Shown piece after piece: positions 31,985 through 35,183 of a stretch of 47,141 nucleotides of DNA. Every line of letters starts with the position of its first letter. Within the stretch, counting starts at the first letter, position 1. Origin of the DNA: Terriglobia bacterium (lineage in GTDB: Bacteria; Acidobacteriota; Terriglobia; Terriglobales; Acidobacteriaceae); assembly GCA_020073105.1 (NCBI GenBank), contig JAIQFW010000042.1, positions 1 through 47,141 of the forward strand, in the 5' to 3' direction. The notes beneath the pieces are model-generated. The model ran no database searches and was not told the DNA's origin. It saw only the letters and a list, made by a program, of their open reading frames with translations. The position numbers and the translations under genes were made by a program.

Positions 31985-33604
31985 CTACACTCCCACTGGA
32001 AACGGCTTGGTGTGGGTCTCGGCACTGAGAGACAATCCTGAAAAGCGGCCCTGGAGCAACGACATCATTCCTGTGCACCAGTAGCCGACGACGAACAGAA
32101 TCAGGAACGGGACCGTGATGTAGTTCTCATTGTCGATGGCGTAGTAAACCGTGATCGCAAAATAACATCCGATCAACAACTCCACCCACGGCACCCAGCC
32201 CAGTCCACGACGATAATTGCCGGCGCGGACCTTGTCCTTTCTTGTCTCTACGCGATACTTCGGCGTGCGGGCAAAAGCCGTCTGCTTGCCGAACAGAGCT
32301 TCCAGTACCGCACGTGTATTGGTGACCGTAAGGCCAATACCCAGAGCCATCAAGAAGGGCAGGTAGAGCAGTGCGCGCAGCCATTTCCCAGGAAAAAGTT
32401 CCCGCTGTGACACCAGATAGAAACTGGAAATCGAAAACGTGGACGCCAGAAACAGCGGCAGATCGATGTACAGCATCTGAAACCAGCCTTGATAGAAGCG
32501 GATGATCATCGCTGGCAAGAGCAGCACGGAGAGGGCAATCATCAAGGGATAGCTGAGATTTGCGGTCAGGTGGTACCAGGCTTCGAGTTTCACGTGAAAC
32601 CGCTGATCGCTTTTGAGCACTTGGGGCAGAATTTTCTTGCTGGTCTGGATCAACCCTTTGGCCCACCGGGCTTGCTGGGTCTTGAAGGCAGTCATCTCGA
32701 CGGGCAGTTCAGCCGGGCATTCCACGTCCTGCAGGTAGATGAACTTCCAGCCTTTGAGCTGCGCACGATATGACAGGTCGGTGTCCTCGGTCAGAGTGTC
32801 GTGCTGCCAGCCGCCGGCTTCGTCGATTGCCTGCCGCCGCCAGACCCCGGCGGTGCCGTTGAAGTTAAAAAAGACGTTGCTGCGCGCCCGGCCCGAGTGC
32901 TCCAGAACAAAATGTCCGTCCAGAAGGATCGCCTCGACTTCAGTCAAGAATGAATAGCCGCGATTAATGTGCGTCCATCGCGTCTGCACCATGCCGATCT
33001 TCGCATCTGTGAAGTGATGGATGGTGCGGCGCAGAAAGTCCGCCGGCGGAACGAAATCGGCGTCAAAAATCGCGACAAACTCCCCCTTTGCGGACTCCAA
33101 CCCTTCCGCCAGCGCGCCTGCCTTGAATCCGTGACGATTGCTGCGATGGTGATAGGTAATGGGGAATCCCAATGCGGCGTAGTGGTTGACCAATCCCCGC
33201 GCCACGGCCACGGTTTCGTCGGTGGAATCGTCCAGCACCTGGACGTCCAACTTGTCCATTGGATAGTCCAGACGGCATACCGCATCCAGCAGCCGCTCCA
33301 CTACGAATTGCTCGTTGAAAATAGGGAGCTGAACGGTGACCCGCGGCAGCTCGGGAAAGCGGGCCCCCGGCTCGGTGGTGCGGTTTTTCTTGTGTTTGTA
33401 GTACAGATAAACCAGAACGTAGCGATGTGCCCCGTAGCTGGCCAGAAGAATCAGCACGATGAAGTACGGGATCAGCAGCCACAGGTCAAAGGCGTTGGGG
33501 TGATACAGGCCCTGAAACGTCTTGTTGAAGAAATGCTGGCGGATGTATTGACCGATGCCCTTGGGGGCGAGTAACTCAGCCAGAATGGTGACAGAAAGAG
33601 ACAT
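31985..33604 (-). CDS. Processive family 2 glycosyltransferase (cellulose/mannan-synthase-like)
   Basis: The protein has 539 residues. One membrane helix (about 40-68) precedes a cytoplasmic GT-A domain with the set of processive synthases: DDS (125-127), DAD (181-183), TED (272-274) and QQARW (310-314). About four more helices follow (about 335-360, 372-395, 410-430, 470-520). The short length and the phrases LPIFNEQFVVERLLDAV and HRSNRHGFKAGALAEGL are close to the CslA/mannan or BcsA-core type without a PilZ domain. Likely makes and exports a beta-linked polysaccharide. No partner subunits lie nearby. Confidence 0.9.
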   Translation of the reverse strand: MSLSVTILAELLAPKGIGQYIRQHFFNKTFQGLYHPNAFDLWLLIPYFIVLILLASYGAHRYVLVYLYYKHKKNRTTEPGARFPELPRVTVQLPIFNEQFVVERLLDAVCRLDYPMDKLDVQVLDDSTDETVAVARGLVNHYAALGFPITYHHRSNRHGFKAGALAEGLESAKGEFVAIFDADFVPPADFLRRTIHHFTDAKIGMVQTRWTHINRGYSFLTEVEAILLDGHFVLEHSGRARSNVFFNFNGTAGVWRRQAIDEAGGWQHDTLTEDTDLSYRAQLKGWKFIYLQDVECPAELPVEMTAFKTQQARWAKGLIQTSKKILPQVLKSDQRFHVKLEAWYHLTANLSYPLMIALSVLLLPAMIIRFYQGWFQMLYIDLPLFLASTFSISSFYLVSQRELFPGKWLRALLYLPFLMALGIGLTVTNTRAVLEALFGKQTAFARTPKYRVETRKDKVRAGNYRRGLGWVPWVELLIGCYFAITVYYAIDNENYITVPFLILFVVGYWCTGMMSLLQGRFSGLSLSAETHTKPFPVGV

Positions 33605-33757
33605 GCTTCGCAGAAGGTGAAGTCCTCAGAAGCCAGCAGCGAGCCAATCTGAAACCTTCATTCTACCTGAAGCTCTTACCGGATTGGGAATGCACGAGCT
33701 GCCGTGTGACAACTGACCATGCGTTTCCGTAAGGCCTTACAGATACTTTGAAATCGT

Positions 33758-33829
33758 GGGCCTGTGGTGTAACGGCAGCACGGAACCCCATCAAGGTTAC
33801 AGGTGCGGGTTCGAATCCCGCCAGGTCCA
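33758..33829 (+). tRNA. tRNA-like gene with non-canonical anticodon loop
   Basis: A 72-base cloverleaf fits: acceptor GGGCCTG/CAGGTCC with one G-T pair, D-arm GTGT-AACGGCA-GCAC, a five-base variable loop, T-arm GCGGG-TTCGAAT-CCCGC and discriminator A. CCA is not encoded. The anticodon arm is wrong for a working bacterial tRNA: stem GAACC/GGTTA has a G27-A43 mismatch, position 33 is C rather than U, and positions 34-36 read ATC. Either this is a decayed tRNA or a tRNA-shaped RNA with another job. Minus-strand ORFs across it are shadows. Confidence 0.55.
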
Positions 33830-33868
33830 TTCCCTCCCCAGAATGAGGTATCTGGCGAGTGCCAAAAT

Positions 33869-33973: not shown

Positions 33974-34008
33974 GAAACGGTCTCGAGAAATCGAGGCCGT
34001 TTCTCTTT
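33974..34008 (+). terminator. Hairpin 2, possible terminator
   Basis: GAAACGGTCTCGA and TCGAGGCCGTTTC pair over 13 bases with one G-T, closed by a GAAA tetraloop (33987-33990) and followed by TCTTT. The right half (33983-34012) is also present in inverted orientation at 34758-34787, so it may be a dispersed repeat that happens to fold. Confidence 0.5.
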
Positions 34009-34012
34009 GCGG
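33983..34012 (+). repeat. Inverted repeat flanking a small membrane protein gene, left copy
   Basis: These 30 bases match the reverse complement of 34758-34787 at 28 positions. The pair encloses about 745 bases with the gene 34223-34585. Confidence 0.65.
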
Positions 34013-34222
34013 GGGGCTGGCCCAGGCTCTCCGACCCACAACATTTTGGGCTGCCCTGGCCTGGTCGAGCCGCATTTCGGCGAGACAGGCCGGGAGAGTC
34101 CGAAAAGAACCGTTGCTGGTCGCGCAAGAGTAAGATCGGCAGGAAAGCGTGGGCCAACCCCTTTACTAGAGCTATCCGCCACCAACACCAGCACCCGAAC
34201 CTCATGGTTTCGGAGGGCCAAA

Positions 34223-34585
34223 ATGATTCAGAGCCGCGACTCAAAAGGCCATTTGCGAACTGCAGTCATCGCCTTCGGAGCGGGTGCCTTAGCCAGTTTG
34301 ATATCCGGAACGATGACGAGCGGACTCGCTGCGGCATACGCTTTAGTAAGCATCTGGGTCTGGGGCATTGTCGCCCGATTCGGCGGCGACACCCTGGCCA
34401 ATGAGAGGTGGTTACTGGTCTTGCTCACGGCTGTGCCGCACGGACTGATCTTTGCTATGGTTATCGTGCTCGGTCGTGTGGCCGCTCCCAAGCTGAAGGA
34501 AAGCGAAATGGGCGGAAATCTATTCTTAGTTGCAGCTGTGCTATATGGGCTGCTGCTATCTGTCCTCTTTCCAGTGACACCTTGA
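34223..34585 (+). CDS. Small multi-pass membrane protein, unknown function
   Basis: The protein has 120 residues from ATG 34223, with GGAGGG 5 bases upstream; the frame is open from 34007, but the earlier part lacks a start signal. Four hydrophobic stretches (AVIAFGAGALASLISGTMTS, AAAYALVSIWVWGIVA, WLLVLLTAVPHGLIFAMVIV, NLFLVAAVLYGLLLSVLF) predict four helices. No family is recognised. It is bracketed by inverted repeats and stands between the tRNA-like gene and the secreted peptide gene. Confidence 0.7.
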   Translation: MIQSRDSKGHLRTAVIAFGAGALASLISGTMTSGLAAAYALVSIWVWGIVARFGGDTLANERWLLVLLTAVPHGLIFAMVIVLGRVAAPKLKESEMGGNLFLVAAVLYGLLLSVLFPVTP

Positions 34586-35006
34586 AATGACGGATGGGTT
34601 AGGCCCAGGTTTGCGCCGCGTGATCAGCATCTTTAACTCCCTAGACATTTATCTGTTGAGGCCTTCCAACCTGGGGGATACGAGATCATCGCCTTCGAAC
34701 GGAGGCTCCCTTCGGCTTCGCTCAGGTTCGCAAATCCGATGAGTAGATCTGAATTCGCCGCAAAGAGAAACGGCTTCGATTTCTCAAGAAATACATCCGG
34801 TATAGCGTGTCTCGTTGGGCAGGCTAGAAACCGGGCCCCCGAACGCAAACAGGCCTCCCAACCATCCTGGCACTCATCGTGATTATCGATGTATCCATCC
34901 CCCTGCGCGAAACTGGTGGCGCGTCTGACGTAGATTACTGGCACTAAAACTCAACCCGCCGAGGGCTGGTGCCACGGCTGGCGGGAACCTCAAACAGGAG
35001 CAACCT
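34586..35006. other. Intergenic region with repeats and a leader hairpin
   Basis: This 421-base space contains the word CCCTTCGGCTTCGCTCAGG (34708-34726), the right inverted repeat (34758-34787) and a leader hairpin, CCCGCC (34955-34960) with GGCGGG (34980-34985), just before the peptide gene. A 103-codon minus-strand ORF (34633-34944) shows no family features and I regard it as spurious. No clear -35/-10 pair is visible for the peptide gene. Confidence 0.5.
34758..34787 (-). repeat. Inverted repeat flanking a small membrane protein gene, right copy
   Basis: This is the partner of 33983-34012, 28 of 30 bases after reverse complement. Confidence 0.65.
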
Positions 35007-35129
35007 ATGAAACTCAAGTGTGCAGCGGTTCTGCTGTTGCTGTTGACGGCGCTGTGTTCGATTAGCTCGGCTGGGCCGATCTCGGATTTCTGCAAGCACC
35101 ACCCGAATGCCGGGATATGCCAACCGTAG
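35007..35129 (+). CDS. 40-residue secreted two-cysteine peptide
   Basis: AGGAG stands 6 bases before the ATG. The product has a textbook signal peptide (KLK, then an unbroken hydrophobic core, then SISSAG) and a mature part of about 18 residues, GPISDFCKHHPNAGICQP, with two cysteines that could form one disulfide across KHHPNAGI. A rho-independent terminator starts 20 bases after the stop and a hairpin stands in the leader, so this looks like an independent single-gene transcript. No family is recognised. It could be a signal, a structural wall peptide or an antimicrobial; the sequence does not decide. Confidence 0.7.
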   Translation: MKLKCAAVLLLLLTALCSISSAGPISDFCKHHPNAGICQP

Positions 35130-35149
35130 TACCCAGATTGTTGCGAGAG

Positions 35150-35174
35150 GGGCCCAGTTGCATGGGCCCTTTTC
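35150..35174 (+). terminator. Rho-independent terminator of the peptide gene
   Basis: GGGCCCA (35150-35156) pairs with TGGGCCC (35163-35169) around the loop GTTGCA and is followed by TTTTCGTTTT. It is one of the two best terminators in the window. Confidence 0.85.
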
Positions 35175-35183
35175 GTTTTGCGA

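What the first reader, a model, noticed from the sequence alone, without database searches (positions are those of the whole stretch)
34955..35174. Self-contained gene for a 40-aa secreted two-cysteine peptide
A strong ribosome-binding site, a clear signal peptide, a mature peptide of about 18 residues with two cysteines, a leader hairpin and a high-quality terminator are packed in 220 bases. The ORF is below usual gene-calling limits, so homologues may be unannotated. Candidate roles are peptide signal, wall-associated peptide or antimicrobial.
Basis: partly seen in the sequence, partly recalled or inferred. Interest (0 to 1): 0.75.

Follow-up and report, generated by a model that had tools for sequence, protein, structure and literature searches.

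The report
Orphan two-cysteine secreted peptide gene
A soil acidobacterium carries a tiny but genuine gene for a 40-residue, probably exported peptide with two conserved cysteines; its only known relative sits elsewhere in the genome of another genus, so it is a real but rare and uncharacterised gene, not a chance open frame.

Summary
ORF 35007-35129 (+) encodes MKLKCAAVLLLLLTALCSISSAGPISDFCKHHPNAGICQP, with an AGGAG ribosome site, a signal peptide ending SSA|G, and a strong 3' hairpin (35143-35176). No such ORF arose in 150 shuffled windows. The 3' hairpin is kept with compensatory changes; the leader hairpin is not supported as conserved. Neighbours differ between the two genomes, and the gene is missing at both sites in the relatives examined. 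No third member turned up in family and phylum samples, a motif scan of 84,980 species, or viral, phage and plasmid sets. Most likely it is an exported peptide with one disulfide loop, encoded by a self-contained, patchily distributed cassette. Its activity (signal, antimicrobial, envelope factor) is undetermined; lack of adjacent immunity, export or receptor genes and near-neutral charge argue mildly against a classical bacteriocin or linked pheromone system.

The parts
   Evidence: folds at -19.2 kcal/mol, z -1.9; the corresponding place in the homologue folds no better than shuffles; weak
34996..35000 (+). Shine-Dalgarno AGGAG, 6-nt spacer to the ATG
   Evidence: sequence; AGGAG kept in the homologue
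35007..35129 (+). 40-aa ORF MKLKCAAVLLLLLTALCSISSAGPISDFCKHHPNAGICQP, stop included
   Evidence: homologue 62%, E 1.6e-10; dN/dS about 0.11
35007..35072 (+). signal peptide, residues 1-22, predicted cleavage SSA|GPI
   Evidence: K2 and K4, hydrophobic core (12-residue Kyte-Doolittle mean 2.86), Ser at -3 and Ala at -1; no lipobox; by rule, not by a trained predictor
35073..35126 (+). mature peptide GPISDFCKHHPNAGICQP (18 aa), Cys29 and Cys38, C-x8-C
   Evidence: both cysteines, GPI, HP, A35 and I37 invariant in the homologue; disulfide inferred
35143..35176 (+). 3' hairpin followed by a T-rich stretch, likely intrinsic terminator; it may serve the convergent mqnC too
   Evidence: -26.4 kcal/mol, z -6.1; 11 pairs aligned with the homologue's hairpin, 2 compensatory and 2 one-sided changes
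34010..35183 (.). segment between the tRNA-Asp flank and mqnC that is absent from relative G014 and carries the peptide gene

Best explanation
A genuine monocistronic gene for a small exported peptide. The 40-aa precursor is translated from a strong ribosome site, exported by Sec and cut by signal peptidase I after Ala22. The 18-residue product GPISDFCKHHPNAGICQP is closed into a ten-residue loop by one disulfide (Cys29-Cys38) in the periplasm and acts there or outside the cell as a soluble effector or signal. The gene behaves as a self-contained cassette (ribosome site, ORF, own hairpin terminator) found at unrelated places in two genera and missing from most relatives. Shown: it is a coding gene under purifying selection, with conserved cysteines and a conserved 3' hairpin. 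Inferred: export, cleavage, disulfide, site of action, horizontal spread.
For: Full-length homologue in another genus, 24 identical residues including both mature cysteines, E 1.6e-10. pS 0.71 against pN 0.21, dN/dS about 0.11; protein identity higher than in neutral simulation, P 0.00085. DNA similarity covers the stretch just before the ATG, the ORF and the 3' hairpin, not the flanks. Hairpin with compensatory changes. Signal-peptide features and SSA|G site in both. Different neighbours: mqnC and tRNA-Asp here, LON-domain and M16 peptidase genes there. Not found beside mqnC or beside the M16 gene in the relatives examined. No comparable ORF in 150 shuffled windows.
Against: Only two members, so motif conservation rests on one comparison. 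The signal part is, if anything, more conserved than the mature part (pN 0.14 against 0.29; Fisher P 0.12, not significant), unusual for an exported cargo. The homologue's hairpin has no clear U-tract. No promoter match. No expression or secretion data.
Confidence: 0.62

Rival explanations
1. A small membrane-active peptide such as a type I toxin: the hydrophobic segment stays in the inner membrane, and an antisense or structured RNA controls its synthesis.
For: Size, hydrophobic N-terminus, single-gene cassette, patchy distribution, N-terminal part at least as conserved as the tail; AlphaFold2 gives a helix over residues 4-21, low confidence.
Against: Canonical signal peptidase site SSA|G kept in both; polar C-terminal motif with two cysteines also kept; one copy in the genome; no Rfam match at gathering score in this region (a 21-bit sub-threshold hit to ctRNA_p42d on the hairpin is probably chance).
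Confidence: 0.13
2. A bacteriocin or microcin-like antimicrobial peptide.
For: Small, probably exported, possible disulfide loop, patchy distribution that fits horizontal spread.
Against: No immunity, ABC exporter or modification gene beside either copy; Sec-type rather than double-glycine leader; mature net charge 0 and +1.
Confidence: 0.1
3. The conserved thing is an RNA with a strong hairpin, and the ORF is incidental.
For: Hairpin z -6 to -7 in both, with compensatory changes.
Against: Substitutions in the ORF follow codon structure, dN/dS about 0.11; the one indel is a whole codon.
Confidence: 0.04
4. A chance ORF.
For: It is short, and no promoter-like site was found.
Against: Homologue, codon-pattern selection, zero such ORFs in 150 shuffled windows.
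Confidence: 0.01

Closest known systems
Unannotated small secreted proteins of Gram-negative bacteria (for example the Pseudomonas syringae set, PMC5014320)
   Same: Short ORF outside annotation with an N-terminal signal peptide; that abstract reports 131 such candidates in one strain
   Different: No sequence relation was tested or is claimed; this peptide is at the short extreme and was found in two genomes only
Class II microcins
   Same: Small exported peptides of Gram-negative bacteria (PMC9746304), some with disulfides (own knowledge)
   Different: Those have double-glycine leaders with adjacent exporter and immunity genes (own knowledge); neither is seen here
Type I toxin peptides (Hok, Ldr, TxpA kind)
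   Same: Small hydrophobic peptide, patchy distribution, strong RNA structure (own knowledge of the family)
   Different: Signal peptidase site and a conserved polar two-cysteine tail; no antisense RNA identified

Membership tests
Unannotated small secreted protein (general kind) | short ORF under selection for its protein | tested here: met
   dN/dS about 0.11, P 0.00085
Unannotated small secreted protein (general kind) | N-terminal Sec signal peptide with signal peptidase I site | tested here: inconclusive
   rule-based features met in both members; no trained predictor and no experiment
Class II microcin or bacteriocin | double-glycine leader | tested here: not met
   sequence: residues before the predicted cut are SSA
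Class II microcin or bacteriocin | adjacent immunity and ABC export genes | tested here: not met
   neighbouring genes
Class II microcin or bacteriocin | antimicrobial activity | not testable with these tools
   needs an assay
Type I toxin-antitoxin | antisense RNA antitoxin | not testable with these tools
   no Rfam family at gathering score; transcription unknown
Type I toxin-antitoxin | uncleaved membrane-resident toxin | not testable with these tools
   the conserved signal peptidase site argues against it
Lipoprotein | lipobox [LVI][ASTVI][GAS]C | tested here: not met
   TALC and ATLC have Leu directly before Cys
Known families in Pfam, NCBIfam, PHROGs, PADLOC | profile match | tested here: not met
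   none at E up to 10

The most novel reading that the evidence does not exclude
A new family of mobile, single-gene, disulfide-looped peptides that soil acidobacteria use for cell-cell signalling or competition, without a dedicated exporter, receptor or immunity gene next to it.
Probability: 0.2. Interest if true: 0.6.

Novelty: new member of a known kind. Interest (0 to 1): 0.38.

Why it matters
It shows a 40-codon gene in an environmental genome to be real, by codon-level selection and RNA covariation. It adds an undescribed secreted-peptide family in a phylum for which a short literature search returned none. The motif GPI..[FY]C[KR].HP.A.IC makes further members searchable in metagenomes. 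Function is unknown, so the interest is moderate.

Tried and rejected
(1) Recurrent PPFCDFC..HP.RAIC matches in many family genomes looked like distant members; they have nearby in-frame stops, no start with a signal peptide, and flanks conserved throughout, so they are most likely frames antisense to a conserved larger gene. (2) A first motif pattern was off by one base and missed the window itself; those two results are void and not used. (3) The other seven hits of the corrected GTDB motif scan lack a signal peptide or run inside long frames. (4) PDB matches are an 11-residue coincidence, E 0.07. (5) Weak single-sequence and HMM hits contain stops or lie in long frames where I translated them; not all were inspected, but a filter over all fetched loci found only the two members. 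(6) Shared neighbours or operon: none. (7) AlphaFold2 model: pLDDT 72, pTM 0.32; too weak for a fold search. (8) Plasmid and phage tblastn: nothing. (9) Leader hairpin as a conserved regulator: not supported. (10) The first scan for small ORFs next to mqnC ignored the strand of some loci and was replaced.

Full report
What is there. The window belongs to an acidobacterial-type genome; its homologue lies in GenBank record QIAB01000058.1, an Acidobacteria gp1 metagenome bin. At 35007-35129 on the + strand is a 40-codon ORF with AGGAG six bases before the ATG, Lys2 and Lys4, a hydrophobic core, and SSA|GPI as a signal peptidase I site. The predicted 18-residue product is GPISDFCKHHPNAGICQP. Thirteen bases after the stop begins a 14-pair hairpin (35143-35176, z -6.1) with a T-rich 3' side. 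A filter for ribosome site, signal-like segment and two-cysteine tail picks only this ORF in the window and none in 150 shuffled windows.

Is it a gene. A search of 200 genomes of the same family found one clear homologue, G048:C138 (L004), 62% identical over the whole length, E 1.6e-10. The three cysteines that the two share (one at the end of the hydrophobic core, two in the mature part), GPI, HP and the final I-C are invariant. Thirty-nine of 117 aligned bases differ, yet pS is 0.71 and pN 0.21, dN/dS about 0.11 (synonymous sites near saturation, so the ratio is rough). The protein is more conserved than in neutral simulation, P 0.00085. The one indel is a whole codon. The 3' hairpin is present in both (z -6.1 and -7.2); of 11 aligned pairs two changed on both sides and two on one side, with pairing kept. 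So ribosome site, ORF and hairpin are homologous as a unit, while the outer flanks are not. The leader hairpin is not conserved in fold strength.

Distribution. A profile of the two found no credible third member in 398 genomes of the family, in a 396-genome sample of the phylum at E 1e-4, or in 60 relatives of G048; these samples overlap. An exact motif scan of one genome for each of 84,980 species gave G048 and seven chance matches; records of the window's own genome may be left out of that scan. Viral contigs, plasmids and phages gave none. More divergent members could be missed, since the profile has only two sequences.

Neighbourhood. Here the gene is convergent with mqnC (radical SAM, CofH/MqnC C-terminal region) and lies 1.2 kb from a tRNA-Asp. 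In nine relatives a homologue of the glycosyltransferase at 31985-33604 follows mqnC closely. In G014, whose mqnC is most similar, DNA matching 34009-33756 (tRNA-Asp flank) starts 36 bases after mqnC, so 34010-35183 is extra here. A 51-bp degenerate copy of the mqnC 3' end at 34784-34834 (75% identical to the resident mqnC, 79-81% to those of G010 and G004) suggests that the segment arose by recombination at the mqnC end. In G048 the gene lies between a LON-domain gene and an M16 peptidase gene; none of 24 relatives has it beside that peptidase. Gain by horizontal transfer is the simplest reading; repeated loss is not excluded.

Mechanism. Most likely an exported peptide with a single disulfide loop. 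The N-terminal Gly-Pro would slow aminopeptidases (general knowledge), which suits life outside the cytoplasm. No partner gene is adjacent in either genome, which argues against a classical bacteriocin operon or a linked pheromone-receptor pair, though unlinked partners are possible. A membrane toxin remains the chief rival, because the signal part is not less conserved than the mature part (difference not significant, P 0.12).

Standing. No family in Pfam, NCBIfam, PHROGs or PADLOC matches. It is an undescribed family of a known kind, the unannotated small secreted protein.

Noticed in passing
34784-34834: Degenerate antisense copy of the mqnC 3' end, 75% identical over 51 bp to the resident mqnC and up to 81% to mqnC of other genera: footprint of a recombination or insertion at the mqnC end.
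   Followed up: partly
33981-34012 and 34758-34789: 32-bp inverted repeat, 94% identical, flanking the segment that holds ORF 34223-34585; it may mark an inversion or insertion.
   Followed up: no
34223-34585: 120-aa probable membrane protein without Pfam match and without homologue in 40 relatives; it lies in the same extra segment as the peptide gene.
   Followed up: partly
L084 (G018), reverse strand, about 100 bases from its end: Another small signal-peptide ORF rich in cysteine, MPKGAFALIFAVFAATSAAAVCSSGQ..., unrelated in sequence.
   Followed up: no
33757-33830: tRNA-Asp is reported with anticodon atc here, while the copy at the same place in G014 (L071) reads gtc; A34 in tRNA-Asp is unusual, so this may be a mutated copy.
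   Followed up: no
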